Shown: positions 17,664 through 32,927 of the stretch, in pieces | How positions within the stretch are numbered: position 1 is the first letter of the stretch | Layout: every line of letters starts with the position of its first letter | Assembly: GCA_937138415.1 (NCBI GenBank) | Contig: CAKZPA010000028.1 | Coordinates: forward strand, 1-39,054 | Direction of reading: 5' to 3' | Length of the DNA stretch: 39,054 nucleotides | Origin: an uncultured Nitrospiraceae bacterium | Lineage (GTDB): Bacteria > Nitrospirota > Thermodesulfovibrionia > Thermodesulfovibrionales > SM23-35 | Notes under the pieces: generated by a model | Databases searched by the model: none | What the model was told of the DNA's origin: nothing | What the model saw: only the letters and a program-made list of their open reading frames with translations | Made by a program: the position numbers and the translations under genes

Positions 17664-18638
17664 TCAGAGGATCTCCTGAAAAGGGATCAGCTCGGAAAAC
17701 GGATAGAGGGTGGACATCGCCTTCGTTACCGTCTGGATACCGGCTTCTTCGAGCGCGGCAATAGGGTTCAGACCGCCGACGATGACCATGCCGGCTCTAT
17801 CGATCCCGACGGGCATTTCGAGAAGCGGCTGATTCGGATTCCCGATGAGGAGAATGCCGCCGAGACCCTTATGGTGCAACGTTTCTCTCAGCGTCGCCGC
17901 TCTCTCGACGCTCACGATCGGAATCTCCCGAAAGCTTGCGAGAATCTTCCCCCTATTGTGCGTCACCGCCCCCTCGACATCGGTCATTCGGCTCCTGATG
18001 AATACTTCGAGGGGATCGAGCGATGATCCCTCGTACGCGATGAGCGCTGTGAAACGAACCGGCTCCGAATTGATCTGGAGCACTCCTCCGAAACGCGAGG
18101 TTACCGGAATACCCGCCTTGAGAAAGATTCCATTGACGGTCACGCTGCATACCGTGCCGAACCCGACGTATTTCTCCGGGACGACAGCCTCACCGATTCT
18201 CTCCCCGGCCCGTTTCAAAATGACCTTGTTTGACATGACATAGGGCGATGTGAAGACCGGCTTCATCAATCCCAGCGCAGGTTTCAAATGCTCTTCCGGG
18301 AAAAACGATATGTTGAGAATGATATTTCCCCGAGACGTATCGAGATCGAGATCGGTGAGGTATGACAGCGTCTCGATCCTGCTTATGACAAAACCAATTT
18401 TTTCGGAAACAAGGGCCTGCTGCAGTTCTTCCCTCCCCTTTGGCGTGATCATTCTCCCTTCCTTGCCGAATACCTTTGTAAATCCCCGCTCGTCAAGGAT
18501 CCTGAGGTGATAGCGAACCGTCCGCTCGCTGAGGTCGATACCGTGCGCCTTAAGGTGTTTCGAAAGCGCGCGCGAACCGACAATCTCGCCCGGATATGCG
18601 TCGAGCACTTTGAGAATCGCCAACATCGTCTTCGTCAT
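17664..18638 (-). CDS. nrpR: NrpR-type (DUF128) transcriptional regulator
   Basis: 324 residues from ATG at 18638 (MTKTMLAILKVLDAYPGEIVGSR); seven upstream codons also open. N-terminal winged helix (residues about 1-75: GSRALSKHLKAHGIDLSERTVRYHLRILDERGF) and one NrpR/DUF128 domain (about 80-320). In methanogens NrpR represses nitrogen genes and is released by 2-oxoglutarate. Here the gene follows a glutamate-synthase-like gene by 67 bases on the same strand, and another glutamate synthase operon lies at 26.1 kb. The spacer has an inverted repeat GCGGGG-N14-CCCCGC of unknown role. One-domain NrpR occurs in some archaea. Confidence 0.9.
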   Translation of the reverse strand: MTKTMLAILKVLDAYPGEIVGSRALSKHLKAHGIDLSERTVRYHLRILDERGFTKVFGKEGRMITPKGREELQQALVSEKIGFVISRIETLSYLTDLDLDTSRGNIILNISFFPEEHLKPALGLMKPVFTSPYVMSNKVILKRAGERIGEAVVPEKYVGFGTVCSVTVNGIFLKAGIPVTSRFGGVLQINSEPVRFTALIAYEGSSLDPLEVFIRSRMTDVEGAVTHNRGKILASFREIPIVSVERAATLRETLHHKGLGGILLIGNPNQPLLEMPVGIDRAGMVIVGGLNPIAALEEAGIQTVTKAMSTLYPFSELIPFQEIL

Positions 18639-18705
18639 GAAATGTCCCGTCCTCTCCATACCGTGGCGTGCGGGGTACCTGAACCGGCGCCCCGCCAGTC
18701 TTCGC

Positions 18706-20307
18706 TCAGATTCTCACCCTTGCCATATCCGCGGAACCGAACAGGATTCTATCCGCTTCCTCCATGTCAGACTCCATAACATAGGGAATGCCCGTCACCT
18801 CTGCGGCCTCCCTCGTGAGCGAGACGAGATCGGAACGATCAATGTACTGAATCGCAAATTTTCTCGCGCCGGCCATGAGCTGCTGGAGTCCGAGCTGCAA
18901 ACGATCGCAGAATGTGTACATGCCGATAGCCCCGAGAGGTATCTTTTTGTACGCTTTCCCGTACTTCGCTTTCAGGGTTTCCGCGCTCACGAATATCTTT
19001 TCCGGCGTGTCGCCATATTTCTTTATTTCGGGGGGAAGCTTGTCTTCCTGTATCCAACGGCCGATATTCTTTGCGACCATCGCCGGTATCATCGTCGCGC
19101 GCCCCATGCAGACCGCTTTCACGAATGGCGAGCCGAGCGCAATTGCTTTGAACACGTGGTCTTCGAGGGAAAAACCTCCCGCCATAGCGAGGTCGGGAAC
19201 GTATTTCCCCCTCGCCCTCAATTCCTGAGCAAATTTATAGGCCAAAGCCTCCAAATAGATGGTCGGGATCCCCCACTCGTTCATCATCCTCCAGGGACTC
19301 ATGCCGGTCCCTCCTCCGGCGCCATCGATTGTGAGAAGATCTATTTCCGCATCGGATGCGAATTTTATCGCGCGCGCGAGATCCGCGACACGATAGGCAC
19401 CGGTCTTCAGTGAGACGAATTTCGCTCCGATCTTTCTGAGATACTCGACGCTCTTCATGAAATTGTCGTACTCGACCATTCCGAGACGGGAATGCCGCTC
19501 GAATTCCTTGAACGCTCCCTCCTTGAAGGCCTTTTGCACAACGGTATCTTCAGGATCCGGCAGCACGACGTAGCCTCTCCTCTTCAACTCGAGCGCTCTA
19601 TCGAGGGTCTTCAGTTTGACTTCGCCGCCGATGTTCTTCGCGCCCTGTCCCCACTTCAGTTCGAGACATTCGACCCCGAGTTTCTGGACTGCGTACTCGG
19701 CCGAGCCGAGCCTCGTATCTTCGACGTTCTGCTGCAGAATAATGGTGCCGTACCTATCCTTCCATTCGTGGAACGTCTTGACGCGCCGTTCCAGTTCAGG
19801 GGAGTTGACCACTTTACCATTCTTCAGCTCCGCGTCAGGATCCATTCCGACGATATTTTCCCCGATCACCACGATAATGCCCGAGATCGCCGCTCCGACG
19901 GCGAGGCCTTCCCAGTTGTCTCTTGCGATATTCGTCGAGCCGAGCGCACCGGTAAAGATCGGCACGCGGAGGGCCACCTTATGCTTGTTGCCGAGCGTCA
20001 CCTCGGTTGAAACGTTCGTAAAGAGTGCCTTATCGGAATCCGGATCGATGCCCACGGCGCCCACGCACGTTCCCTGGATATTCAGGTGAGAATAGTCGAC
20101 GGGATACTCTTTGACTGCGCCCGCCGTGACTTTACCGAATGGTTGAGGGTAAAGGACTTCCCTTCCTCTAAAAGAAGATTTGCCGATTTCGCAGATTCCC
20201 GGGCAGCCGTCGAGACAGACCGAACAGATACCTGAATAGGGTGCCGGATCCGAAACCCTATTTTTTGTTCCCGTTGCGGTGCTTGCGTTCGGTTTACCGT
20301 AATTCAT
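18706..20307 (-). CDS. Glutamate synthase-like FMN-domain protein
   Basis: 533 residues, archaeal-type GltB FMN domain without an N-terminal glutaminase. An N-terminal Cys cluster, CSVCLDGCPGICEIG (residues about 29-43), is a likely Fe-S or metal site. Typical central motifs: LKWGQGAKNIGGE, TIDGAGGGTGMSPWRMMNEWG, and CMGRATMIPAM. Lacks the GXGXG structural domain. May use ammonia or partner subunits, or may not make glutamate; only the fold is certain. ATG preceded by GAGGAGGAG. Confidence 0.88.
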   Translation of the reverse strand: MNYGKPNASTATGTKNRVSDPAPYSGICSVCLDGCPGICEIGKSSFRGREVLYPQPFGKVTAGAVKEYPVDYSHLNIQGTCVGAVGIDPDSDKALFTNVSTEVTLGNKHKVALRVPIFTGALGSTNIARDNWEGLAVGAAISGIIVVIGENIVGMDPDAELKNGKVVNSPELERRVKTFHEWKDRYGTIILQQNVEDTRLGSAEYAVQKLGVECLELKWGQGAKNIGGEVKLKTLDRALELKRRGYVVLPDPEDTVVQKAFKEGAFKEFERHSRLGMVEYDNFMKSVEYLRKIGAKFVSLKTGAYRVADLARAIKFASDAEIDLLTIDGAGGGTGMSPWRMMNEWGIPTIYLEALAYKFAQELRARGKYVPDLAMAGGFSLEDHVFKAIALGSPFVKAVCMGRATMIPAMVAKNIGRWIQEDKLPPEIKKYGDTPEKIFVSAETLKAKYGKAYKKIPLGAIGMYTFCDRLQLGLQQLMAGARKFAIQYIDRSDLVSLTREAAEVTGIPYVMESDMEEADRILFGSADMARVRI

Positions 20308-20439
20308 CTCTTTTCTCCTCCTCGAATCAGTATTTTTAAAAGCGAACGAAACTATGTTCAGTATTGCTCACGCTCCTCTACAAAAAAACGCCCACGCATT
20401 CCCGCCGGTCAGCACACGTACGAAACGCTCATGAGGAGC
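20308..20439. other. Spacer between KaiC/HTH/cupin regulator and glutamate-synthase-like gene
   Basis: 132-bp spacer on a minus-strand run. It contains a T7 run after GC-rich sequence (minus strand, about 20380-20400) that could be a weak terminator for the regulator, and a GAAC-N8-GTTC half-dyad near 20344. No gene seen. Confidence 0.3.
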
Positions 20440-21699
20440 TCAGCGGGAGTTCAGCAAGAGAATTTCCGCGCTATCACCTCCTTCATTTTGAATGAGAGAT
20501 GCACTTTCGTGCGTGAGAAAGATAGAGTCACCCGGTCGTAGTGTATCGCGCCTGCCATTCACCACAACTGCGACGTCGCCCCTCATGACATAGAGCAACC
20601 TTTTCCCCTCGGAAGGGATCAGCGTTTGCTTGCAAAGCGCATACGGCTCGATCACAATGAGCGTCCCCGACATCGTGCCGTTCTGCGCGATACGAAACCC
20701 TTTTACTCCTGCCTCCTCATGGATGGGAGAGGCATAAATTGTTCTCTTTCTGATTATCCAATCCGCCTCGATCGGTTTCCTATCGAGCGTTTCAGAGATG
20801 CTGACGCCTAACGCGTCGCATATTTGAAGAAATGAGCCGAGCGACGGAGTAATTTGATCGTTCTCCATCTGGGAAATGAAGCTTGGGGTAAGACCTACCT
20901 TCTCAGCGAGCTCCTTCTGACTCATTCCCATTCTCATCCGCAGTTCTCTCATCCTCCGCCCAATGTCGAATGCCGGCTCACGCTTGATGGACGTTATCAG
21001 GACATTGTCCCCGACAATTTCGTACGTATGTGGTTTGAAGGCTTGCCGATTCGGGCGCCCATCGAGCTTGAGCGCCTTGATCCAGAGCCTCTCTTTCCTT
21101 TTGTACAATTCCAGCACGACTTGCGTGATATGCCTGAGGTTCGCTTTGAATTTCTGGCTATGCGCATCTTTCTCGAGTATCCAATAAGCAACGGTCCCGA
21201 AGTCGTAGAGAAGGGGACACAAATACGTAAAGAACTTGTAGGTTTTCTGTTCGTCTCCCCAAAGGTCCTGCATCCCCGTCAGGCTATCGAAGACGTACCG
21301 CCCCCCATCGCCGGTGCCCTCCTCGAGAGAAGCGAGGAGGGATATAAACTGATCGATGTCCCTGGGATCGCCGACCTTTCTCACGCGTGAGTCATGTCGG
21401 CTTCCATAGAACCTTGCAAATACGGGATCATTTTTCCCTTTCCCGGAGGTGAAACAGTCGAGCAAGACGAACTCACCTCGTAAGTCGGCGTCGCCTATCT
21501 TCTGAAGGATGGTCTGGGGCGATTGGTTGAAACTTATATAAATGACTTTTCGACCCTCCGAGAGGGATTGTCGCAGGAAACTGAGCACGAACGCCTCGGG
21601 TGCCGTTCCCGCTTCGACCTCCCAGACGACATTATCTCCCACATAGAGAGAGTCTTTGAGGTTGTCAAGATCTGTAATCCCGGAATAGATCTTCGACAT
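20440..21699 (-). CDS. Regulator: degenerate KaiC/RecA-like domain + HTH_3 + cupin
   Basis: 419 residues. Residues about 1-235 resemble KaiC/RadA-like RecA domains (TDLDNLKDSLYVGDNVVWEV; VFDSLTGMQDLW as Walker B), but the Walker A loop reads EAGTAPEAF rather than GxxGxGKT, so ATP binding is doubtful. Residues about 237-300 form an XRE helix-turn-helix (MRELRMRMGMSQKELAEKVG). Residues about 340-419 form a cupin_2 domain ending with EILLLN. XRE-cupin regulators usually sense small carboxylates. A nested inverted repeat lies 11 bases upstream of the gene, so autoregulation is likely. The target may be the LUD/PEP-binding genes. Confidence 0.85.
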   Translation of the reverse strand: MSKIYSGITDLDNLKDSLYVGDNVVWEVEAGTAPEAFVLSFLRQSLSEGRKVIYISFNQSPQTILQKIGDADLRGEFVLLDCFTSGKGKNDPVFARFYGSRHDSRVRKVGDPRDIDQFISLLASLEEGTGDGGRYVFDSLTGMQDLWGDEQKTYKFFTYLCPLLYDFGTVAYWILEKDAHSQKFKANLRHITQVVLELYKRKERLWIKALKLDGRPNRQAFKPHTYEIVGDNVLITSIKREPAFDIGRRMRELRMRMGMSQKELAEKVGLTPSFISQMENDQITPSLGSFLQICDALGVSISETLDRKPIEADWIIRKRTIYASPIHEEAGVKGFRIAQNGTMSGTLIVIEPYALCKQTLIPSEGKRLLYVMRGDVAVVVNGRRDTLRPGDSIFLTHESASLIQNEGGDSAEILLLNSR

Positions 21700-21710
21700 G
21701 GTTCGTGGGC

Positions 21711-21754
21711 GAACGGTTACCTATAGCTTTTCTACATTAAAGCTTGAACCGTTC
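21711..21754 (-). promoter_or_regulatory. Large nested inverted repeat upstream of the KaiC/HTH/cupin gene
   Basis: Outer arms GAACGGTT (21711-21718) and AACCGTTC (21747-21754), inner arms AGCTTT (21725-21730) and AAAGCT (21739-21744), all perfect and sharing one centre. The layout suits two dimers of a dyad-binding regulator; the XRE protein beside it is the natural candidate. Confidence 0.55.
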
Positions 21755-21809
21755 TTTGTCAAGAAAAGGAAAACAAAAACGACAGGAACTCACATCGACA
21801 ATCGGAGCT

Positions 21810-22993
21810 TCACATTGTAGTAAAGCCAAAGGAGATGCGATTTAAGGAAGAAAACACCTCGTGCGGTAACGAGTCGCCTCGGATTTTCCTTATCAGGGAA
21901 GGCACGTCGATCGAGAGAGGGCAATTTTGCCGGCACCTCCCGCACGTCAGGCACAATTCGAGCAGCTTCTCCTTCTCCTCGCTTACCAGACTCTTATAAG
22001 CCGGCCCCTTTCCGCCGAGATACGTGCCGTCCGTAAAAGCAGTCCCTATCGTCCCGTACAGGGGACAATGGAGGAGGCAGTTTCCGCAGTCGATGCAGAA
22101 GAGGAGTTCCCTGAACCCTTTCTCCACGAGTGTAGTTCTCCCGTTATCGAGAAGGATCACCACGACATCCCTCGGTGCGTGAACCCCCGGGCAGAACGTT
22201 TTCTCCACATCGGCAGTCTTGCTGATTCCACCGACGATCTCAACAAAGGAGGGGATCAGGCTTCCCGTCGCATTGAACGAGATGACCTTTACCATTGTGA
22301 GCGCATCCTCTATCGTCGGATAGACCTTATCGATAGCCGTAACGACGATATGCTTCTGCCTCCGTATGACTTCGAAAATATATTGCCTTCATTGTGGGCG
22401 GTAACGATAGCCCCTTCCTCCGCAGTGATCGCGTTCGCTCCAGTAATCCCGATCGCCGCTCTATCGAGATATCCTCGTATCTCCTCCCGGACAATCTCGA
22501 CAATCTCCGCCGGTTTGCTCCCAACACGCTTCCCGCAAACAGTCGTGAGCCCTTCGGAGATTGTCTTCGCGGACAGGTGCGCAATGGGCCCTGTCGGATG
22601 CGAGGGGGTACCCTTGAGGAGTTGAAGAATTCTGTCGCCAATGTCTGTCTCGATGACGGTCACCCCCTTTGATCCCAATCCAGCCGCGAGTCCGATCTCT
22701 TTCGTGACATTCGACTTCGACTTGACGACGAGCGTCTCGGCGCCGATCTCCCGCACGATTACTTCGAGGGCATCATCCTTAGTTGCCACCGGAAAGACCC
22801 GGATTCCGTTCTTTTTCAGATTCGTGACCGCTCGTTTGAGGAGGTCTTCATTCCCGACAGATGCGTGTCGGACAATCTTCAGCCGCGCTATCTTTTCATC
22901 GAGATCATCTGGTATGTTTTTCTGCTGTCGCTCTTTGACAATCGAAAAAGCCTTTCTCAACGCTTTGACTTCGTCAAAATCGATGGGGTCCAC
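21810..22993 (-). pseudogene. LUD-domain/ferredoxin (LutB-like) protein, frameshifted
   Basis: The N-terminal frame (from 22993) carries a LUD domain: KKNGIRVFPV, LVVKSKSNVTKEIGL, GPIAHLSAKT, AITAEEGAIVTAHNEGN. At about 22375 the frame shifts: the family continuation FEVIRRQKHIVVTAIDKV is found in the next frame, followed by the second open frame with CIDCGNCLLHCPLYG and CLTCGRCRQNCPL clusters. One lost T in a T-run (minus strand) restores a protein of about 394 residues. LutB-like proteins oxidise lactate or related 2-hydroxy acids with LutA/LutC-type partners, which are absent here. The 3' part ends 110 bases before the regulator. Confidence 0.8.
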
Positions 22994-23011: not shown

Positions 23012-25662
23012 TTAGTTCCTCGATTCCCCCAGAGGGAATGCCGCTTCACGAAGGAATTCTTCCAAGTATCGCCCTACCGCTTCATCATCCTCCATCAGTA
23101 CGTCCATCTGTTTCGTAAGTACGGTGAGTTTACCGAGAATCACCAACTTTTCCCGAAGGTTCTGTTGCGTATCCTTGGTAATGATGGCATCAATAATATC
23201 CTCAGCAATCTTCGAGTAAAATCCCAGTCCCCGCAAGATTCTATTAATGAGTTCGACCCGTCGCGGACGTCTTTCCCGGTCGGCCCCGCCACCTTTAAAA
23301 AAGAATCTGATGTAATTGTCGTTCAAATGTTCGCCTGCGTACGCCTCCATAACAGAGAGATGATACCCCAGTCTGATGGAAAAATTCATAATATTCCCGG
23401 GAAATGAATGCAAAACTCCTCTCGCCAATCCTCACGAGTTCTTCTTCTGGAATTGCCGCTGTATGTGCCACCATGCCAAAAAATCCTCTCACATCAATAT
23501 GTCTTGGCTCCGGCCACGGCAAGGCGGACAACCCGTCCAAAAATGCACCCAACGGCAAAGAGTGAATGTGCTCCCGGTGAAGCCCTTTTTTCGCGGAGAC
23601 CGTGATGCTCTCCCCGAGATCGATGACATCAATGCAAAGAGGAATCCCTATGCCGAGCCGATACACCTCGCTATCCTCAGGATAGTCAGACGTTATCGTA
23701 AACATCTCGTGCATTGCCTTTTGGTGCGCGAACCGCGTTATGTCGTGGAGGGTCTTGCAGCATTCAGGGCGAAAGACCTCGCCATCGGTATCCACTAACG
23801 TCAACGGAACAATGAGACCGCAAACCCTCTTTGCCAAAGTCAGGAACCGCGTTTCCGGTGCCCGCACTTTCTTTTCCCCTCCCTTGTCGACGAGTTCTTT
23901 GACGATCTCGTCATAGACGATCCCATGAATGGCGTCGACCGTCACTTCCTGATCGTTTCTGATCACGCGCGTTGCACCCCCTGTTCCGACGAGAGCGGGA
24001 ACACCAAATTCGCGCGCTATCGTCGCCATATGCATGGTTGCAGATCCGATATCCGTAACCAGGGCGCGCGCCTTTCCGATGACAGGAGCGAATCGCGTCG
24101 AGGTGTACTTTGTGGCGAGCACTGCGTTGTCGGTGAATGTTCTCAGATCGTCCATTGCGCTCACGATGGTTGCCCGTCCGCATCCAATCCCCCGGCTCGT
24201 GATCGTGCCTTTATCGAGCAGAACCCTGTAGCCCGTCAGGGGCGTGTACGGCTCCGCCTGAGCCTGCATCGATGGAATCACGAGAGGCCTGGTCTGCACG
24301 ACGAAGACGCGACCGAGATCGTCAACCGCCCATTCGATATCCTGGGGGCATCCGTAGTGATCTTCGATTGCGAGAGAAAAATCAGAGAGCTTTTTGATAT
24401 GTTTTTCGGATAGGCATGTTCTCTCCAATCCGGAATCGGGAACCGGTACCTTTTCGATATCGCCGTCCGCTCTGCAGACGAACATCTCGGTTTGTACCTG
24501 GATTTCATCCCAACGAACAACGGAAAACGGAAGCCTTGCGACACGGTATCTGACGGGGGTCGTGAGACCCTCCACTGCCAACCCGCCGAGGCCAAGGACT
24601 GCGCTGATGAGGATCGAATCTTCACCGGGACTATTCGGATCCCTCGTATACAGAACTCCGGCCGCCTTGACCTCGATCATCTCCTGGATCCCGACAGACA
24701 TCGCGATCCCGTTCTCATGATATCCCTTTGTTTTGTAACACGTGAGCGCGCCGGGAGAGTACAAGCTTGCAACGACGTCTTTGTATCGCTGGAGGATGCT
24801 ATCCCCAGGGACATTGAGGAATGTTGTGTACTGACCCGCGAAACTGAATTCTCCGTCTTCGTGGACAGCACTGCTGCGAACTGCGCCCCGAACGAGGCGC
24901 TTCTTCCCCTCGCAGAGTCGCAAGTATGCCTCGCTTATCCCCCTTTCAAGATCGGGGGGCATAACGGCCCGCGCAATTCTCGATCACAGGTCTTCGAGGG
25001 CATCGCTGAAAAAGTCGATGTCACGGGTTCGAATCTCGGAGAGGACCTTTTGCACGTCGGCAAACAGCGCGTTGTGCTCCAAAAATTTCTGGAATGCGAA
25101 CGTGCTCACGGCAAAGCCATCGGGAACTGGAATGCCAAGGTGTTTCTTGATCTCACCCAGATGCGCGTTCTTGTTGCCGAATCCGAGCACATTATCCCTT
25201 GAAATGCATCTGCATCTGAACGGTCCTGTGTACCTGCAGACCGGGATGTCGATCCGTACCGAAAGAAGATGATCGATCTTCTTCGAAATGTCCTCATATC
25301 GCTCATTGAGAATCTGATTCTGTCTTTCGAAATACGATTCAGGAGTTCGATCATCCCGCGCACTCTTTCCAGAACCTGTGAACAACCTCGCCGGAATTCC
25401 ATCCTATCGGGAGTTCCCCTCCTGACGAGTAACTTTTGATATCTGCCATCAACCTGAGGACTTCGTTATTGCGCGCAAGAAGTTCCTGAAAGGCGCGGTA
25501 TTTCCCGCCGACGTCGACCGCCACCTTCTCCCCGGGCGTCCAGGGTTTCGCAGGCTTTCTGAAAATATCGGACAGCTGCTTTAATATCTTCTCTTCATAT
25601 AGAGAACCCCCAAAGAAAAAGGCCGAGCACGCCGTGAACTCATCCTTCGGCAGCTCAGCCAT
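23012..25662 (-). pseudogene. PEP/pyruvate-binding (PEP synthase-like) protein, multiply disrupted
   Basis: About 880 codons. Pieces: 25662-25351 (start MAELPKDEF, ends at a frameshift near 25355); a segment in another frame to TGA 24984-24986; the same frame resumes directly (SRIARAVMPPDLERG) with PPDK N-terminal motif VRSSAVHEDGEFSFAGQ and the mobile-domain block DIGSATMHMATIAREFG with its His; a further single-base shift near 23390 (family-like EYMNFSIRLGYH); end 23012. The C-terminal third is not the PEP synthase TIM barrel, so this belongs to the 'PEP/pyruvate-binding domain' relatives of unknown reaction. Several lesions in one gene favour true decay over error. It heads the LUD gene. 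Confidence 0.75.
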
Positions 25663-26106
25663 CTCTTGTTTCAAGATCCGCCGCTTTCCGCAACCTTCTC
25701 GCAAAGGGTTGGCTTTATCGATGAACTCTCAAAATCTGTCTGTCTATTTCCATGACTCTCATGTGCGAAACCACACGCCCCTCTTTTCTCCTGCTCCCCT
25801 TACTTCACGTTTATCAAAAATGTCCCCCCGTGTCAACAGACCTCGGTAATATCGAGGCAAAATCACGTCGCAGACCCTCCGATCACCACCGGAGGGCCGT
25901 GAATGAGCGCGCATACCGAGTCCCGTCGTTGAACATATGAATAATCGCGGCGTAACAAGGGGGTGTGTAGTATTCCCCTTACAGTATAGGGGGAGGAAGA
26001 GATTTGATACAAAATTGTTTTTTGCTTGACAAATTTGTTTCGCTCCTTTTAGTGTAAAGTCAACGGCACACGGTTGCCGTCAAAGTAATCCCGTGAGGTA
26101 ACGACC
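25663..26106. promoter_or_regulatory. Divergent intergenic region upstream of glutamate synthase operon
   Basis: Contains several dyads: CCCTCCG-N8-CGGAGGG (25875-25896, perfect 7 bp), CCCCT-N8-AGGGG (25975-25992) and ACGGCA-N6-TGCCGT (26063-26080). A TTGACA box at 26026-26031 has no convincing -10. The glutamate synthase gene has a GTGAGG-type site before ATG 26107. No gene is seen here beyond a possible decayed 5' end of the PEP-binding protein. Confidence 0.4.
26063..26080. promoter_or_regulatory. ACGGCA-N6-TGCCGT dyad, candidate NrpR operator
   Basis: Perfect 6-bp arms separated by exactly six bases, about 30 bp downstream of a TTGACA box and 26 bp before the glutamate synthase start. 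Archaeal NrpR operators are short dyads with N6 spacers (for example GGAA-N6-TTCC). The geometry matches; the arm sequence differs. Binding by the window's NrpR is a hypothesis. Confidence 0.35.
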
Positions 26107-27216
26107 ATGTGCAGATTGGCAGCGATCACGTCGAACGATTATTTTTCCCCGATGGAGAATATTCTCGCCCTCGAGACGATGAAGGAAGGACATGATGGTT
26201 CAGGCCTCGGCCTGACGCTCAAAGACCTTGGGGGGCATTTCGAGCACCTGAAGGGCTTCCCGATTCTCTCCGGAATATGTTCAAAGAGCGGGACGAAGGT
26301 CCTCGACGACTTTATGGACAAAGCGGGCTTTCAGTTGAAAGACGTCTGGGCACCAAAAATAAAGCCCGTCAGGGGAATCAGACCGCGAGACCATTATTTT
26401 GCGCGAGTGTATGATTATCCATTTTCCTTTAAATATAAACCCTGGCGGGAAAAAGAAGACCTGCTCATGAACACGCGCATCACGTTACGAAAGATCGGGG
26501 AGCCGGACGAGTCGATCTTCGTCTTTTCTTTCTACCCAGACGTGTTGACGCTGAAGGAAGTCGGGGATCCGCTGCAAGTTGCGGAGTTTTTCGGTCTCGA
26601 TAAGGGTGGTCTGAAGGCGAAGATTATTTTTGCTCAGGGGCGGCAGAACACAAACTACGCGATCTACCTCTACGCATGCCATCCCTTCTTCATCCAGGGA
26701 TACTGCTCTATGACGAACGGCGAAAATACTGCGTTCATGCCTATCCGACAGTTCCTCACGAGCAGGGGGTTCCCAGGGTATATCGGGTATAACAGCGACA
26801 GCGAGGTTTTCACCCATATCCTGCACTACGTCGTTCGGCAACTGGGGCTTCCTCTGACATACTACAAAGATGTGATCACGCCGCTCTCTGAACGCGACAT
26901 AGAGCGGAGAACGGACAGGGAGGCCCTGCGGCTCCTGACGTATTCCTTGCGGCCGCTGTGCATTGACGGACCCAACGTCGTCATCGGATTCACCCCTGAC
27001 GGCACGTGTTTCATGGTGCATGATGCGAAAAAGCTGCGTCCTGGTGTTGTCGGCGGTGTGAAGGGGAAATATGCTCTGATGTCCGAAGAGTGCGGATTAG
27101 ACAGTGCAATTCCGAAACGAGACAAATCTTTGGACCTTTTCCCCATGAAATACGACATGGTGATCGTCAGGCCCGAGGCTGAGGAGGTAATTGTATGGAA
27201 CCAGCTCTCCCATTAG
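26107..27216 (+). CDS. Glutamate synthase, glutamine amidotransferase subunit (archaeal GltB1 type)
   Basis: 369 residues. ATG-Cys start gives the catalytic Cys2 nucleophile (MCRLAAITSNDYFSP), typical of class II amidotransferases; EGHDGSGLGLTL near residue 30 is the substrate-loop region. Hydrolyses glutamine and passes ammonia to the FMN subunit. First of three coupled genes; overlaps the next by 22 bases. Separate glutaminase, FMN and GXGXG subunits are the archaeal layout. Confidence 0.93.
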   Translation: MCRLAAITSNDYFSPMENILALETMKEGHDGSGLGLTLKDLGGHFEHLKGFPILSGICSKSGTKVLDDFMDKAGFQLKDVWAPKIKPVRGIRPRDHYFARVYDYPFSFKYKPWREKEDLLMNTRITLRKIGEPDESIFVFSFYPDVLTLKEVGDPLQVAEFFGLDKGGLKAKIIFAQGRQNTNYAIYLYACHPFFIQGYCSMTNGENTAFMPIRQFLTSRGFPGYIGYNSDSEVFTHILHYVVRQLGLPLTYYKDVITPLSERDIERRTDREALRLLTYSLRPLCIDGPNVVIGFTPDGTCFMVHDAKKLRPGVVGGVKGKYALMSEECGLDSAIPKRDKSLDLFPMKYDMVIVRPEAEEVIVWNQLSH

Positions 27217-28856
27217 ATCATAACCATCAGCTGTCGCTGAAAGAATTTCCGTATCTGATCCGCTGGCGCGACGACTGTTGCAAACGGTGCGGAAGGTGCA
27301 CCGCCGTCTGCCCGGTCAAAGCAATTGTCCCTGCCGTAAAAGTGCGGCGGATCGTCCAATCAGAATCCCCCATCCCGACCCCCACCGCGGTGAGGAAGAT
27401 CGTTCACGTCATCGAGCAGGTGCCGGACATAGAACGCTACTGTACGGGTTGCGGCACGTGCACCCTCGTCTGCCCAAACGATGCGATAGAACCAGAATAC
27501 AATCCCGTGAACAAGTTTCTGCACTTCAAGAACAGAGGGGGAGAGGGGTACAGACGTGGAGGGAGGCGAAACGATCCCGCCGTTTCGACACTCGATAGGC
27601 TGAAATTCACGAGGATCTCGATGCTGACCGACCCTGCTCTCGACGCAGGGAGACACGAATTCCGCGTCAGGACCCTCCTCGGACGGATATTGCCTCCTGA
27701 AGAGCTGCCGATCGTTGTCACGGACGGGACACTCGGTGTGGATACGACATCCGATACATTCGTCCCCCCTGTTCGCGAAATATTCCCTATCATGATCGGC
27801 AGCATGTCCGTTGGGGCGCTCTCGCCGCCGATGTGGGAAGGCCTCGCGATGGGTGTTGCCTACCTGAACGAAGTGGAAAACCTCCCGGTTGTCATGTGCA
27901 CCGGTGAAGGTGGCGTGCCCCCGAGGCTCCTCAAATCTCGTTTTCTGAAATATATGGTGCTCCAGATCGCATCCGGTTATTTCGGCTGGGACGAGATCAT
28001 TCACGCAATCCCTCACATGGTGGAAGATCCGGCCGCGATCGAGATCAAATACGGGCAGGGTGCGAAGCCGGGCGATGGGGGTCTCCTCATGGCGCAGAAA
28101 GTCATGAAACTCATTGCGAGCATCCGCGGAGTGCCCCAGTTCGTTGACCTGGCGTCGCCCCCGACCCATCAAACGAAATACTCCATTGAAGAGGCGGTTG
28201 CCAAAATGATTCAGTCGATGTCGATGGCGTGGGGATTCAGGGTTCCCGTCTATCCAAAAATCTCCGGTACGAAGACGGCGAGAGCCGTCCTCAACAATCT
28301 CGCGCGCAATCCTTACGCTGCAGCGCTCTCGATCGACGGCGAAGACGGTGGTACGGGGGCTGCTTACAATGTCTCGATTGATAAGATGGGACATCCCATC
28401 GCTTCGAATCTGCGGGAGTGTTATCTTGATCTCGTACGGCAGGGAAAGCAGAATGAACTGCCGCTCATTGCAGCTGGCGGAATCGCAAAAAAAGGTAATC
28501 TTGCGGCCAATGCGGCTGCCCTGATCATGCTCGGCGCCTCGGCCGTCTCTATCGGGAAATACATGATGCAGGCAGCAGCCAACTGCTTTGGCGATGAATA
28601 CAACCGATGCAACATTTGCAATACCGGGAAGTGCCCGAGGGGCATCACAACTCAGGACCCGAAGTTGTTCCGGAGACTGGACCCGGACAAGGTGGCTGAG
28701 CGTGTCGTCGAAATATTCAAAGCCGCAAACGTCGAACTGAAAAAAATCTTCGCGCCGATGGGCAGAAGTACGGAACTGCCTATCGGAATGTCCGACGGTC
28801 TGAGTGTCGACGACAAAGCAATTGCGGAGCGACTGGAAATAAGCTATGCGTGCTAA
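27195..28856 (+). CDS. Glutamate synthase, FMN-binding subunit with N-terminal ferredoxin domain
   Basis: 553 residues, ATG 27195 with GAGGAGG upstream. Residues about 29-95 hold two 4Fe-4S motifs (CCKRCGRCTAVCPV, YCTGCGTCTLVCPN). The FMN barrel follows: IKYGQGAKPGDGGLL, SIDGEDGGTGAAY, and the 3Fe-4S motif CNICNTGKCPRGI near residue 473. Catalyses 2-oxoglutarate plus ammonia to glutamate. The ferredoxin domain is an electron entry point. Eleven-base overlap with the next gene. Confidence 0.95.
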   Translation: MEPALPLDHNHQLSLKEFPYLIRWRDDCCKRCGRCTAVCPVKAIVPAVKVRRIVQSESPIPTPTAVRKIVHVIEQVPDIERYCTGCGTCTLVCPNDAIEPEYNPVNKFLHFKNRGGEGYRRGGRRNDPAVSTLDRLKFTRISMLTDPALDAGRHEFRVRTLLGRILPPEELPIVVTDGTLGVDTTSDTFVPPVREIFPIMIGSMSVGALSPPMWEGLAMGVAYLNEVENLPVVMCTGEGGVPPRLLKSRFLKYMVLQIASGYFGWDEIIHAIPHMVEDPAAIEIKYGQGAKPGDGGLLMAQKVMKLIASIRGVPQFVDLASPPTHQTKYSIEEAVAKMIQSMSMAWGFRVPVYPKISGTKTARAVLNNLARNPYAAALSIDGEDGGTGAAYNVSIDKMGHPIASNLRECYLDLVRQGKQNELPLIAAGGIAKKGNLAANAAALIMLGASAVSIGKYMMQAAANCFGDEYNRCNICNTGKCPRGITTQDPKLFRRLDPDKVAERVVEIFKAANVELKKIFAPMGRSTELPIGMSDGLSVDDKAIAERLEISYAC

Positions 28857-31275
28857 AAAGGTCAAGAGCCAGAAGTCAAAAAAGACATCCGCCTCCCATC
28901 ATATTCCCTCGAGGCAAGAGGATAAAGGACTGAGAGAAGACGTCGAGTTCAAAGGGATAACGATCGACGGGATCGTCGACGGAAAGCGTGTGTCCTCCCG
29001 TATTCTTGAAGAACAGATTCAACAGGCGGTCAAGGACGGAGCTCGACTGATACGCATCATCGCCGACGGACAGCATGGTATCGGCGGAAGAATATGGCCA
29101 TGCGGTGAAACCGTCACAATTACGGTGGACGGCCCCGTAGGCCAGAGGCTCGGGAGCATGGGCATGATCGGGACCGAAATCATCGTGAATGGAAGTGCGT
29201 CGGATGATGTCGGCTGGCTCAACTGTGGAGCCAAAATTACCGTCCTGGGCGACGTTACGAACGGCGCGTTCAATGCTGCCGCACAAGGAATACTGTATGT
29301 TCAGGGGAGCGGCGGTGCGCGGTGCGACACGATGACGAAACACAACCCCCGCTTCGATCCACCACAGTCATGGTATTTCAGGAACGTGGGAGATTCATTC
29401 GCCGAATTCAAAGCCGGCGGGGTCGCCGTCGTATGCGGCGTCGATTCGAGGAACCCCCGGAACATCCTCGGCTATCGGCCGTGCGTCGGCATGGTGGGCG
29501 GGACGATCTATTTCAGAGGTCCGATCGAGGGGTATAGCGAGCGGGATGTGAAACTCCTCGACCTTACCCCTCAAGATTGGGAATGGCTCACAACAAATAT
29601 GAAACCATACCTTGAGGCAATTGACAGGATGGCGTACTATCGCGAGCTCACACGTTCTCCGGACGAATGGAAAAAATTCATCGCGTACACGCCGCAGGAA
29701 AAACGCTCCCGGCGATGGTTCAAGATGACCACCGTCGATTTCAGAAAAAACATCTGGGAAAAGGAAGTTGGGCAAGGAGGAATCTTCGCCCCCTACTTTG
29801 ACCACGATCTGACGGTCCTCCCCTACATTACAACCGGAAAGGACAGGAGGAACAAACCGGTATGGGCGAACGAGAAATATCTTCCACCGTGCACCTACAA
29901 TTGTCCGACGCATATCCCGTCGCACAAGAGGGCTTCGCTCGTCAGGCAGGGGAAACTCCACGAGGCGTTGGCGCTCGTGCTCGAGTACAGTCCTCTCCCC
30001 GCCACGGTCTGCGGTCAGATATGCCCGAATCTCTGCATGCAAAGTTGTACGAGGAAGAAACTCGATAAACCACTCGGAATCGACCAGTTCGGCAGGCTCG
30101 CTCTCGACCTCCCCGCCCCGAAAAGAGCCGAACCGACCGGTCATACGATCGCGGTCATCGGCGGAGGACCCGCGGGGCTGAGCGCCGCGTGGCAGCTTGG
30201 GCTCAGAGGACATACCGTGCACCTCTTCGAAGCTGCGGACAAGCTCGGCGGTAAACTCGAACTCTGTATTCCGAGAGAACGGCTTCCGCAAGAGGTCCTC
30301 CAAAGAGAACTTTCGCGGTTCATGGAAATCGGGGTCACGGTCCACCTGAATGCGCGAATCGATCAGCGGAAGTTCGAGGAAATGTACCGCGATCACGAGA
30401 TCGTCGTCATCGCGTGCGGCGCCCACAAACCGAGAATTATTCAGTTCCCCGGTTCGGAGCACGTTATTTCGGCCTACGATTTCCTGAGAGGGATGAACAG
30501 GGGAGATGTCCCCGACCTTCAGGCGAAAAAGGTGGTTATCATAGGTGCAGGAAACGTGGGGATGGACGTCGCGTCGCAGGCGTTCAACTGCGGTGCGTCA
30601 ACGGTCGTAGCGGTGGATATACAGAAGCCCGCTGCGTTCGGGAAAGAGATGGACACGGCCCTCGCCAAAGGGACACAGATCCTCTGGCCTAAGTTCACGG
30701 ACCGTTACGATCACGAGGAGAAGAAGCTGTATTTCAAGGATGGATCGTTTCTCGAAGCCGACGTCGTCGTAATGTCCGTCGGTGATGTCCCCGTCCTCGA
30801 CTTCTTGCCGCCGACCATCCATACGGAGAGAGGGTGGATCGCGGTCAATGAGATCGGACAAACTTCGGATGTGAAAGTCTTTGCGATCGGAGACGCCACT
30901 CGCCTGGGGCTCGTCACCCACGCGATCGGACAGGGGAGAATCGCTGCCGAGACGATTCACTATCAGCTCATGCACGCGCCGCGATGGCCGGAGATCAAGC
31001 AGGTCATCCCCTACGAGCGCATCCGAACGGAATACTACGATGTCTGCCGCGGCGATTTCACCTCTCCCGAGCAGGAGGCGAATAAGTGCATGTCGTGCGC
31101 TACCTGCCGTGACTGCCACATGTGCGAGGCGACCTGTTACTGGGGCGCGATTCAACGGGTCCAACACGAAAACGGATCGTACGAATACGTCGTTGACGAT
31201 GAAAAGTGCATCGGGTGCGGATTCTGCGCCGGCATCTGCCCGTGCGGCGTCTGGGAGATGGTGGAGAATGTATGA
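28846..31275 (+). CDS. Glutamate synthase GXGXG domain fused to GltD-like oxidoreductase and ferredoxin
   Basis: 809 residues. Residues about 25-235: GXGXG structural domain (IADGQHGIGGRIWP, GMVGGTIYFRG). Then a GltD-type N-terminal Fe-S region (CTYNCPTHIPSH, CGQICPNLCMQSC), an FAD-binding motif AVIGGGPAGLSAAW near 430, a NAD(P)-binding motif VIIGAGNVGMDVA near 565, and a C-terminal double ferredoxin (CMSCATCRDCHMCEATC, CIGCGFCAGICPCG). So the structural domain, the NAD(P)H dehydrogenase subunit and extra clusters are one chain. Supplies electrons to the FMN subunit. Last of the three-gene operon. Confidence 0.95.
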   Translation: MRAKKVKSQKSKKTSASHHIPSRQEDKGLREDVEFKGITIDGIVDGKRVSSRILEEQIQQAVKDGARLIRIIADGQHGIGGRIWPCGETVTITVDGPVGQRLGSMGMIGTEIIVNGSASDDVGWLNCGAKITVLGDVTNGAFNAAAQGILYVQGSGGARCDTMTKHNPRFDPPQSWYFRNVGDSFAEFKAGGVAVVCGVDSRNPRNILGYRPCVGMVGGTIYFRGPIEGYSERDVKLLDLTPQDWEWLTTNMKPYLEAIDRMAYYRELTRSPDEWKKFIAYTPQEKRSRRWFKMTTVDFRKNIWEKEVGQGGIFAPYFDHDLTVLPYITTGKDRRNKPVWANEKYLPPCTYNCPTHIPSHKRASLVRQGKLHEALALVLEYSPLPATVCGQICPNLCMQSCTRKKLDKPLGIDQFGRLALDLPAPKRAEPTGHTIAVIGGGPAGLSAAWQLGLRGHTVHLFEAADKLGGKLELCIPRERLPQEVLQRELSRFMEIGVTVHLNARIDQRKFEEMYRDHEIVVIACGAHKPRIIQFPGSEHVISAYDFLRGMNRGDVPDLQAKKVVIIGAGNVGMDVASQAFNCGASTVVAVDIQKPAAFGKEMDTALAKGTQILWPKFTDRYDHEEKKLYFKDGSFLEADVVVMSVGDVPVLDFLPPTIHTERGWIAVNEIGQTSDVKVFAIGDATRLGLVTHAIGQGRIAAETIHYQLMHAPRWPEIKQVIPYERIRTEYYDVCRGDFTSPEQEANKCMSCATCRDCHMCEATCYWGAIQRVQHENGSYEYVVDDEKCIGCGFCAGICPCGVWEMVENV

Positions 31276-31344: not shown

Positions 31345-32862
31345 ATGGCACAGTCATTAGCACGGGAAAATAAAATTCTCGCGGCCCTCCTCGAGGTAAG
31401 CAGGGTCCTCAATTCATCGTTCGACCTCGAACGCAATCTGTCGAGGGCGATGTCCGTCCTCGGAGACATCCTCGAGATGGAGCGCGGATCCGTATTTCTC
31501 CTCGATCACACGTCGAGGGAATTGAAGATCGTCGCCGCCCACGGCCTCACCAAAGAACAGATCCGGAGGGGGATTTACAAGATCGGGGAAGGAATCGTCG
31601 GTCGCGTGATCGAGAAGGGAATCCCAATGGTCATTCCCAACGTCGGGGAAGAACCGCTGTTTCTCAACAAGACAGGGGCTCGAATCGGCAAGAGCGGTAT
31701 CTCGTTCCTCTGCGTCCCCATCGTATTCAAAGGGGAGCCGATCGGCGTCCTCAGTGTCGATAAAATTTTCAAAGACCACGCGGTCACGATCAGCGAAGAC
31801 ATCCGTGTTCTCGAGATCATCGCGTCCATCATCGCCCAGTATATCATCTTGTGGAAGCATTTCAGGGAATCCGAAGAAGAGAAGGAGCACCTGAAATTGC
31901 AATTGAAGTGCAAGTACAGTCTCCCGAACATCATCGGGACGTCCGACAAGATGAGGGAGATTTTCGAAGCGGTCAGCCGTGTTGCGGACTCGAGGGCGAC
32001 GGTCATCCTCTACGGCGAGAGCGGCACGGGGAAAGAGCTGATCGCAAAGTCGATTCACTACATGAGTCCGCGGGCAAAGGCGCCGTTCGTCAAATTCAAC
32101 TGCGCATCGATTCCCGAAGGGCTCCTTGAATCGGAGCTCTTCGGTCACGAACGCGGAGCCTTTACCGGTGCAATCAATGTCAGGAAAGGGCGTTTTGAAA
32201 TCGCCCATACGGGGACGATTCTCCTCGACGAGATCGGTGATCTCCCCCTCAATCTCCAGCCGAAAATACTCCGAGTCCTCCAGGAGAGGGAGTTCGAAAG
32301 GGTTGGCGGCGAGAAGACGATAAAAGTGGATGTGCGGCTGATAGCGGCGACCAGCAGAAACCTCGAGGAACTCGTATCGAAGGGGAAATTTCGCGAAGAC
32401 CTCTTTTACCGGCTGAACGTCGTCCCGATATTCATGCCGTCTCTGCGGGAGAGGAAGGAGGACATACCCTTGCTGGTCGACTTTTTCCTCGCCCGGTTCA
32501 ACCGTGAAAACGGCAAGAATGTGGCTATCTCACCCGAAGCCCTCCGTGTGCTCATGAAGTATGCGTGGCCCGGAAATGTGAGAGAACTCGAGAACACGAT
32601 AGAACGACTCGTCGTGATGGCCGGCAGAGACGTGATTAGGGCAACGGACCTCCCGATCACCCTGAAATTACCCCCTCCGGAAGATATCCTCCAGAAGGAA
32701 TCGCTCAAAGCGGGCATCGAGGATATCGAAAAAACGAGCATCCGCGAGGCACTCGAGAGAACGGGGTGGGTTCAGGCAAAAGCGGCGCGACTGATCGGGC
32801 TGACCCCGCGGCAAATCGGCTATAAGATAAAGAAATACGGCCTGACAGAACGCGCCAGCTGA
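31345..32862 (+). CDS. GAF-domain sigma54-dependent activator (NifA-like)
   Basis: 505 residues. GAF domain about 18-170; AAA+ domain about 190-425 with Walker A GESGTGKE, sigma54-contact loop GAFTGA and Walker B ILLDEIGDLP; C-terminal Fis-type helix-turn-helix (AKAARLIGLTPRQIGYKIKKYG). NifA and relatives have this layout; position directly after the glutamate synthase operon suggests nitrogen control. Ribosome-binding site AGAGGG before ATG 31345. NifA proper is not certain since no nif genes are in view. The 69-base gap to the previous gene holds no terminator. Confidence 0.92.
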   Translation: MAQSLARENKILAALLEVSRVLNSSFDLERNLSRAMSVLGDILEMERGSVFLLDHTSRELKIVAAHGLTKEQIRRGIYKIGEGIVGRVIEKGIPMVIPNVGEEPLFLNKTGARIGKSGISFLCVPIVFKGEPIGVLSVDKIFKDHAVTISEDIRVLEIIASIIAQYIILWKHFRESEEEKEHLKLQLKCKYSLPNIIGTSDKMREIFEAVSRVADSRATVILYGESGTGKELIAKSIHYMSPRAKAPFVKFNCASIPEGLLESELFGHERGAFTGAINVRKGRFEIAHTGTILLDEIGDLPLNLQPKILRVLQEREFERVGGEKTIKVDVRLIAATSRNLEELVSKGKFREDLFYRLNVVPIFMPSLRERKEDIPLLVDFFLARFNRENGKNVAISPEALRVLMKYAWPGNVRELENTIERLVVMAGRDVIRATDLPITLKLPPPEDILQKESLKAGIEDIEKTSIREALERTGWVQAKAARLIGLTPRQIGYKIKKYGLTERAS

Positions 32863-32891
32863 ACACGCTTTACATTTCACACCGCCTCCTG

Positions 32892-32922
32892 ATGACACTT
32901 TTGTAGCGCTTTGTTATATAAT
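32892..32922 (+). promoter_or_regulatory. Promoter giving a nearly leaderless transcript for the next gene
   Basis: ATGACA (32892-32897) and consensus TATAAT (32917-32922), spacer 19 bp. The ATG at 32928 is five bases after the -10 box and no Shine-Dalgarno precedes it, so the transcript would begin at or beside the start codon. Confidence 0.45.
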
Positions 32923-32927
32923 ATCCA

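What the first reader, a model, noticed from the sequence alone, without database searches (positions are those of the whole stretch)
20440..21699. Three-part regulator: degenerate KaiC/RecA domain, XRE helix and cupin
The RecA-like domain lacks a P-loop, so it may be a sensor or oligomerisation platform instead of an ATPase. I know of KaiC-like and XRE-cupin regulators separately, not commonly as one chain.
Basis: partly seen in the sequence, partly recalled or inferred. Interest (0 to 1): 0.55.

Follow-up and report, generated by a model that had tools for sequence, protein, structure and literature searches.

The report
P-loop-less KaiC nitrogen gene regulator
A bacterial gene switch built from a clock-protein-like domain that has lost its ATP-binding loop, a DNA-binding helix and a sensor barrel sits almost always next to the same glutamate-synthase-like gene, which suggests that the dead ATPase was turned into a sensor for nitrogen metabolism.

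Summary
The 419-aa ORF at 21699-20440 (-) has a KaiC/RecA-fold N-domain (AlphaFold2; 217 residues on PH0284, Z 24.2), an XRE helix-turn-helix and a cupin. The P-loop is absent: the Walker A Lys position is Lys in 0 of 85 relatives covering it. The domain is not decayed: 13 residues never vary from bacteria to methanogens.

The three-part protein ('KaiX') is in 45 of 295 sampled genomes of its phylum and in nine deltaproteobacterial loci. In 44 of 45 it lies directly upstream, same strand, of a PF01645 glutamate-synthase-like gene (42 by coordinates, 2 across contig breaks). An NrpR-type site, GGYAACCGNTTRCC, lies directly before kaiX in 18 of 24 tested NrpR+ genomes and 0 of 5 NrpR- ones. Two AATACTNAA-type boxes 30-32 bp apart precede the glutamate-synthase-like gene.

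Best reading: a nitrogen-regulon transcription factor whose non-hydrolysing KaiC domain and cupin sense or oligomerise, controlling the neighbouring gene. That KaiX binds the boxes is inferred; two kaiX-less genomes keep them. Ligand and sign are unknown. In methanogens and Verrucomicrobia the same P-loop-less domain is fused to a PEP-synthase-type PPDK_N domain. New variant of a known kind.

The parts
20440..21699 (-). kaiX: KaiC-like domain without P-loop (aa 1-241), XRE HTH (aa 245-302), cupin (aa ~325-419)
20977..21699 (-). KaiC-like P-loop-less domain, aa 1-241
20794..20967 (-). XRE/HTH_3 DNA-binding domain, aa 245-302
20443..20727 (-). cupin barrel, aa ~325-419; in this member the usual motif-1 His and Glu positions are Thr359 and Arg367 (motif recalled, register by eye)
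21708..21721 (-). GGTAACCGTTCGCC, putative NrpR-type operator just before the kaiX start codon (one letter off the pattern GGYAACCGNTTRCC)
21734..21763 (-). TTGACA (21758-21763) - 18 nt - TAATGT (21734-21739), candidate kaiX promoter read by eye; the second hexamer is weak and the promoter scan did not call it
20318..20392 (-). gltS leader element R1: T-tract G followed by two AATACTGA boxes
   Evidence: E 8.5e-10 in G000; the window is one of the 29 training sequences
20358..20365 (-). box 1, AATACTGA (candidate KaiX operator)
20327..20334 (-). box 2, AATACTGA, 31 bp downstream of box 1
18706..20307 (-). glutamate-synthase-like protein (PF01645), the conserved downstream neighbour of kaiX ('gltS' in this report)
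17664..18659 (-). NrpR-type nitrogen repressor (PF01995 NRD1_2 + HTH_12)
26065..26078 (-). second NrpR-type site (1 mismatch) upstream of the candidate split-GOGAT cluster
   Evidence: ten such matches in the window, 5.5 expected by chance
26107..31275 (+). candidate split glutamate-synthase cluster: 26107 (no Pfam or NCBIfam match; GATase-like by eye), 27195 Glu_synthase+Fer4, 28846 GXGXG+GltD-like

Best explanation
KaiX is a transcription factor of the nitrogen-assimilation network. Its N-domain is a KaiC/RecA fold that can no longer bind or hydrolyse ATP in the usual way and most likely works as an oligomerisation and ligand-sensing platform (inferred). The XRE helix binds DNA (inferred from the family). 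The cupin is a second small-molecule sensor (inferred; no complete metal site in this member). NrpR, the 2-oxoglutarate-sensing repressor encoded two genes downstream, probably represses kaiX through the GGYAACCGNTTRCC-type site at the kaiX start (inferred from co-occurrence). KaiX then acts on the adjacent glutamate-synthase-like gene, most likely as a dimer pair on two AATACTNAA-type boxes 30-32 bp apart. I lean to repression (about 60:40), because the boxes lie close to the start codon in Nitrospirota and, by eye, overlap or follow promoter-like hexamers in two deltaproteobacterial genomes. Shown: architecture, predicted fold, loss of P-loop, conservation, gene linkage, motif distributions. 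Not shown: any binding, ligand, oligomer or regulation.
For: Fold and domains. Strong constraint despite the lost P-loop: G7, D12, G21, N23, W26, C161, P162, L164, Y172, H180, Q193, K211, R215 unchanged in all of the 84-86 unique sequences with a residue there, and seven more in the 72 that have an extra segment; mean column identity KaiC domain 0.67, HTH 0.71, linker plus cupin 0.48 over 38 proteins. Linkage: kaiX in 45 and gltS in 50 of 295 genomes, both in 44; 42 of 45 kaiX have gltS 77-278 bp downstream on the same strand; G194 and G080 are the same across contig breaks; only G217 lacks gltS. NrpR site: exact motif directly before kaiX in 18 of 24 NrpR+ kaiX+ genomes and somewhere in the genome in 22 of 24, against 0 of 5 NrpR- kaiX+ (p 0.004 and 0.0002). 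Leader element R1: of 43 hits with E<1e-4, 42 lie within 200 bp upstream of a listed gltS and the last, in G194, before the gltS start at a contig end; among kaiX+ genomes not used for training 13 of 22 have such a hit, against 2 of 35 kaiX- genomes; second gltS paralogues in 5 genomes also carry it, once on another contig. In two of nine genomes where kaiX and gltS are not adjacent, the gltS upstream region carries TTAAGTGTGACTTAA (12/12) or GTTAGTAATACTTAA (10/12), shuffle p 0.003 and 0.027, not corrected for nine tests.
Against: G186 and G271 keep the R1 element before gltS without any KaiX N-domain at E<=0.001, so the boxes may belong to another factor. The kaiX+/kaiX- contrast is confounded with gltS: only 6 of the 35 kaiX- genomes have gltS. 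Among gltS+ genomes the element is in 36 of 44 kaiX+ and 2 of 6 kaiX- (p 0.024), and 23 of the 44 gave training sequences. The other seven deltaproteobacterial kaiX genomes show no box near gltS above shuffles, and 24 of 42 Nitrospirota intergenic regions have shuffle p>0.05 for the best single palindrome. In kaiX- genomes the NrpR site is not significantly tied to NrpR (9/21 versus 5/22, p 0.20), and G217 has a near-match site but no NrpR found. In archaea the fused domain and gltS do not co-occur more than expected (4/9 versus 20/36). Genomes are related, so p-values overstate independence. No sigma-70 promoter was called in the window stretch.
Confidence: 0.5

Rival explanations
1. KaiX regulates nitrogen genes, but the AATACTNAA boxes and T-tract are a promoter or leader read by another factor; KaiX acts elsewhere or by protein contact with the glutamate-synthase-like enzyme.
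For: G186 and G271 have the element before gltS but no KaiX N-domain at E<=0.001. The element follows gltS: 42 of 43 strong hits lie within 200 bp upstream of a gltS. The T-tract and fixed spacing look like core promoter or leader parts.
Against: Among gltS+ genomes the element is commoner with kaiX, 36/44 versus 2/6, partly trained; gltS of G203 and G209, which lack kaiX, have an NrpR-type site upstream and no element there; L032 keeps a weak copy (E 4e-5) after kaiX where the next gene is not gltS.
Confidence: 0.3
2. The leader element is a structured RNA (riboswitch or leader) of gltS and KaiX is only a passenger.
For: Hairpins around box 1 in some subclades (seen by eye); the element lies close to the ribosome-binding site.
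Against: RNAalifold predicts 0 pairs on 29 sequences; no Rfam match in these leaders (11 leaders searched).
Confidence: 0.07
3. The KaiC-like domain is a vestigial ATPase with no function beyond spacing or folding; the protein works as an ordinary XRE-cupin repressor.
For: Walker A and the catalytic Glu pair are lost; proteins matching only the XRE-cupin part also occur in the phylum.
Against: Residues invariant from bacteria to archaea, and conservation close to that of the HTH; the same P-loop-less domain is reused in fusions with PPDK_N.
Confidence: 0.13

Closest known systems
KaiC / KaiC-like RecA-family ATPases (PF06745; PH0284 2dr3, KaiC 7s65)
   Same: Predicted fold over residues 1-241 (Z 24.2 and 23.5); Walker-B-like FDSLTG; an invariant Lys in a KaiC K-L-R-like place (aligned by eye, KaiC letters recalled).
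   Different: No Walker A Lys, no catalytic Glu pair; single domain joined to HTH and cupin.
XRE-cupin transcription factors (1y9q, PuuR model NF007408; HppE 1zz6 has the same HTH-cupin order)
   Same: HTH_3 followed by cupin; profile match to 1y9q over positions 243-406 (E 2e-11).
   Different: Extra KaiC-like N-domain; the window's cupin lacks the usual metal ligands. PuuR model score 52.7 against a cut-off of 211.
P-loop-less RecA-fold proteins such as Elp4 (PAXNEB; its nature recalled)
   Same: 13 of 38 KaiX members match PAXNEB at E<=0.001; RecA fold without P-loop (Elp4: recalled).
   Different: The window protein is not among the PAXNEB matches; Elp4 is a tRNA-modification subunit (recalled), not a DNA-binding regulator.
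NrpR nitrogen repressor of methanogens
   Same: A neighbouring gene is an NRD1_2 protein; the 14-bp inverted site resembles the NrpR operator pattern (operator letters recalled).
   Different: Here in bacteria, and linked to KaiX.

Membership tests
KaiC family ATPase | RecA/KaiC fold | tested here: met
   AlphaFold2 model aligns to PH0284 and KaiC, Z 21-24 in the 50 rows shown
KaiC family ATPase | Walker A GXXXXGKT (definition read in passages of PMC5520375) | tested here: not met
   Lys at position 34 in 0 of 85; no GK[ST] in the region in 86 sequences
KaiC family ATPase | catalytic Glu pair (same paper) | tested here: not met
   position 58 is N/A/D/T in 84 of 85, Glu in 1; window SFNQSP
KaiC family ATPase | Walker B acidic residue | tested here: met
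   D138 in 79 of 86, E in 7
KaiC family ATPase | ATPase activity and hexamer | not testable with these tools
   no assay; no complex prediction made
XRE-cupin regulator | HTH_3 then cupin in one chain | tested here: met
   HTH_3 38 of 38, Cupin_2 37 of 38 members at E<=0.001
XRE-cupin regulator | Cupin_2 above curated cut-off in the window protein itself | tested here: not met
   19.2 bits versus 27.2; strands of a barrel are predicted
XRE-cupin regulator | metal ligands of cupin motifs 1 and 2 (motifs recalled; to my knowledge not required in all such regulators) | tested here: not met
   window T359 and R367; relatives H359 27/38 and E367 27/38; the motif-2 His position (register by eye) is W in 29/38
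XRE-cupin regulator | sequence-specific DNA binding | not testable with these tools
   only motif distribution available
NrpR regulon (for kaiX) | NrpR-type site in the promoter, present only with NrpR | tested here: inconclusive
   directly before kaiX 18/24 NrpR+ versus 0/5 NrpR-; in kaiX- genomes 9/21 versus 5/22 have it anywhere; G217 has a near-match site but no NrpR found
structured RNA leader of gltS | conserved covarying structure | tested here: not met
   RNAalifold 0 pairs in 29 sequences; no Rfam match in the 11 leaders searched
Elp4/PAXNEB | PAXNEB profile match | tested here: inconclusive
   13 of 38 members at E<=0.001, window not listed

The most novel reading that the evidence does not exclude
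A P-loop-less KaiC-like domain is an ancient metabolite sensor for glutamate and nitrogen metabolism shared by bacteria and archaea. It lost ATP hydrolysis but kept a set of invariant residues (N23, W26, H180, Q193, K211, R215 among them) that may form a new pocket for a different ligand, and it has been plugged into two outputs: an XRE-cupin DNA-binding module in bacteria and a PPDK_N module in methanogens, Verrucomicrobia and relatives.
Probability: 0.3. Interest if true: 0.72.

Novelty: new variant of a known kind. Interest (0 to 1): 0.5.

Why it matters
Pseudo-ATPases are rarely caught with a clear genetic context. Here the loss of the P-loop, the reuse of the fold in two unrelated fusions, and a near-fixed place upstream of one metabolic gene make a testable case of an ATPase fold turned into a sensor. 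It would also add a second layer to nitrogen control in little-studied Nitrospirota, between NrpR and a glutamate-synthase-like enzyme.

Tried and rejected
RNA leader hypothesis for the gltS upstream element: RNAalifold found no consensus pair, Rfam no match in the 11 leaders searched. PPDK neighbour in the window as a conserved partner: the window PPDK pieces gave no hit at E<=1e-8 in the 56 loci, so the nearness of that gene to kaiX is not conserved there; only the fusion in other lineages links the two. Archaeal co-occurrence of fused domain and gltS: no enrichment, 4/9 versus 20/36 (36 of the 70 genomes without the domain were tested). gltS lies under 200 bp before the fusion gene in 5 of 8 archaeal loci; the genomes of the other three have no gltS match. 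A hidden KaiX in G186 and G271 that would explain their boxes: none at E<=0.001. Similarity of gltS to solved GOGAT structures: phmmer gave only designed proteins, so 'glutamate-synthase-like' rests on Pfam alone. Sigma-70 promoter around kaiX in the window: the scan called none, and no terminator between kaiX and gltS. Dropped before counts: only hits of 464 bits and above were counted as KaiX (three of the 45 are cut by contig ends); XRE-only or XRE-cupin-only hits of 111 bits and below were not. In one search I gave 72 genomes: 24 of 39 NrpR+ kaiX+, 5 of 6 NrpR- kaiX+ (G213 left out because its NrpR shows at a contig end), 21 of 23 NrpR+ kaiX- (G072 and G087 left out), 22 of 227 with neither.

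Full report
What is there. The finding's coordinates are exact: a 419-aa ORF on the minus strand, ATG at 21699 and stop at 20440. Pfam finds KaiC (PF06745, residues 6-203, E 1.9e-6), HTH_3 (250-303, E 1.3e-15) and a sub-threshold Cupin_2 (about 366-414, E 1e-3). AlphaFold2 on a 38-sequence alignment gives mean pLDDT 84.9 and pTM 0.57; segments under pLDDT 50 are 239-243 and 306-311, the two linkers. Over residues 1-241 the model superposes on PH0284 (Z 24.2, 217 residues, 2.4 A) and KaiC (Z 23.5); Foldseek also returns the HTH-cupin proteins HppE and 1y9q.

The P-loop is gone, not hidden. In the profile alignment to PH0284 the GPGTGKT segment falls on EAGTAPE of the window, and the KaiC FEESP segment on SFNQSP (register by eye). 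Of 86 unique N-domains, 85 cover position 34 and none has Lys; position 58, which stands opposite a KaiC catalytic Glu, is Asn, Ala, Asp or Thr in 84 of 85 and Glu in one. The Walker-B acid is Asp in 79 and Glu in 7 of 86. Thirteen residues never vary in the 84-86 sequences with a residue there: G7, D12, G21, N23, W26, C161, P162, L164, Y172, H180, Q193, K211, R215; seven more never vary in the 72 that carry an extra segment around residues 81-98. So the domain is under strong constraint for something other than canonical ATP hydrolysis. In the 38-protein alignment mean column identity is 0.67 for the KaiC part, 0.71 for the HTH and 0.48 for linker plus cupin. In the window the cupin lacks the usual motif-1 His and Glu (T359, R367), which 27 of 38 members have at each position.

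A conserved family. The genome scan returned 56 loci. Forty-three (L001-L043) carry the family protein in full or cut form: nine deltaproteobacterial (L032, L035-L042), the rest mostly titled Nitrospirota or Thermodesulfovibrionales, two only 'uncultured bacterium'. L044-L056 match the N-domain: L051 (Solirubrobacterales) also reads into an HTH by eye; the other twelve are reading frames of 541-901 aa, L055 cut. Three tested (L044, L050, L056) carry PPDK_N (PF01326) behind the domain. In the phylum sample 45 of 295 genomes have KaiX (three cut by contig ends), with a clean gap to the next hits (464.6 versus 111 bits). Loci and genomes overlap in part, so they are not independent samples.

Gene context. 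In the window kaiX is followed by a glutamate-synthase-like gene (18706-20307) and an NrpR-type repressor (17664-18659), and preceded by a split LutB-like pair. Divergently lie a candidate split glutamate-synthase cluster (26107-31275), a NifA (31345, above the NCBIfam cut-off) and an NtrC-like gene (32928). In the 295 genomes gltS (E<=1e-100) is in 50, kaiX in 45, both in 44; the Fisher p of 1e-44 is inflated by relatedness. NrpR is in 62 of 295 and in 39 of the 45 kaiX genomes. In 42 of 45 gltS starts 77-278 bp behind kaiX on the same strand. Of the other three, G194 shows the start of gltS at the contig end, G080 has the kaiX C-terminal piece and gltS side by side on a second contig, and G217 has no gltS. 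All nine deltaproteobacterial kaiX genomes have a gltS match, not adjacent; in L032 it lies 3.5 kb downstream. In five of eight archaeal loci gltS lies under 200 bp before the fusion gene, but across the order the two do not co-occur beyond expectation (4/9 versus 20/36).

Regulatory sites. Upstream of kaiX most Nitrospirota loci have TTGACA, a weak second hexamer, and then a GGYAACCGNTTRCC-type site right at the start codon. The exact motif lies directly before kaiX in 18 of 24 tested NrpR+ kaiX+ genomes. It occurs anywhere in 22 of those 24, 0 of 5 NrpR- kaiX+, 9 of 21 NrpR+ kaiX- and 5 of 22 NrpR- kaiX- (the 72 genomes were chosen by me from 295; reversed-pattern controls matched in 7 of 72). 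This fits an NrpR operator. The operator's letters are recalled; passages of PMC9765008 and PMC8809328 state a specific NrpR operator and 2-oxoglutarate-dependent repression in methanogens, without letters. gltS of G203 and G209, which have no kaiX, have this site upstream. Between kaiX and gltS lies a regular element: a T-tract ending in G, about 16 nt, an AATACTNAA-type box, a second box 30-32 bp on, then a GGAGG-type ribosome-binding site. A sequence-only model of it (29 sequences, 23 of them from the 45 kaiX+ genomes) was searched in 80 genomes: hits with E<1e-4 are in 36 of 45 kaiX+ (13 of 22 not used in training) and 2 of 35 kaiX- genomes; 42 of 43 such hits lie within 200 bp upstream of a gltS, including second paralogues in G140, G178, G219, G281 and G283. 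Because gltS itself tracks kaiX, the fair contrast is among gltS+ genomes: 36 of 44 with kaiX, 2 of 6 without (p 0.024). In the window two AATACTGA copies with this spacing occur once and in 0 of 100 shuffles (the pattern was chosen after seeing the site). The consensus palindrome TTAAGTNNNACTTAA also appears near gltS in two of nine genomes where kaiX is not adjacent (p 0.003 and 0.027 by shuffling, uncorrected), but not in the six Desulfoluna-like ones nor before gltS in L117; in Nitrospirota 18 of 42 intergenic regions reach p<=0.05 for one palindrome.

Mechanism proposed. Under ammonium excess NrpR would hold kaiX and the GOGAT cluster down; on nitrogen limitation 2-oxoglutarate would release them. 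KaiX then tunes gltS through the two boxes, with its KaiC-like domain and cupin reading metabolites. The NrpR part follows NrpR biology known from methanogens plus the motif correlation; the KaiX-box part is inference from linkage and distribution, weakened by G186 and G271. The sign is a guess leaning to repression.

Known or new. XRE-cupin regulators and KaiC-like proteins are known; the joined, P-loop-less form was not seen in the listings of the eight paper searches, all in an open-access library (the mBio 2017 survey of archaeal KaiC-like proteins, cited in a passage of PMC13286277 is not held). I file it as a new variant of a known kind.

Noticed in passing
window 23295-25385 (-): PEP-synthase-like (PPDK_N + PEP-utilizers) gene is interrupted by an in-frame TGA at 24984-24986; decay, recoding or sequence error cannot be told apart.
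   Followed up: partly
window 25645-25722 (-): c-di-GMP-I-GGC riboswitch-like match, 40.8 bits (gathering 59), E 1e-6, upstream of the PEP-synthase-like gene.
   Followed up: no
window 21810-22993 (-): LutB-like protein split into a LUD ORF and a Fer4 ORF; the same pair precedes kaiX in L002, L004 and L010.
   Followed up: partly
L044, L047, L053 right of the fusion gene: The archaeal KaiC-PPDK fusion is followed by genes that look like an F420:NADP oxidoreductase and a glutamate dehydrogenase (named by eye).
   Followed up: no
L091 435-528: tRNA-Sec just upstream of kaiX in G158.
   Followed up: no
L104 (G087): kaiX appears eroded: only its C-terminal part is found before gltS.
   Followed up: partly
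window 31345-34223 (+): NifA and an NtrC-like sigma-54 activator next to the candidate split glutamate-synthase cluster.
   Followed up: no
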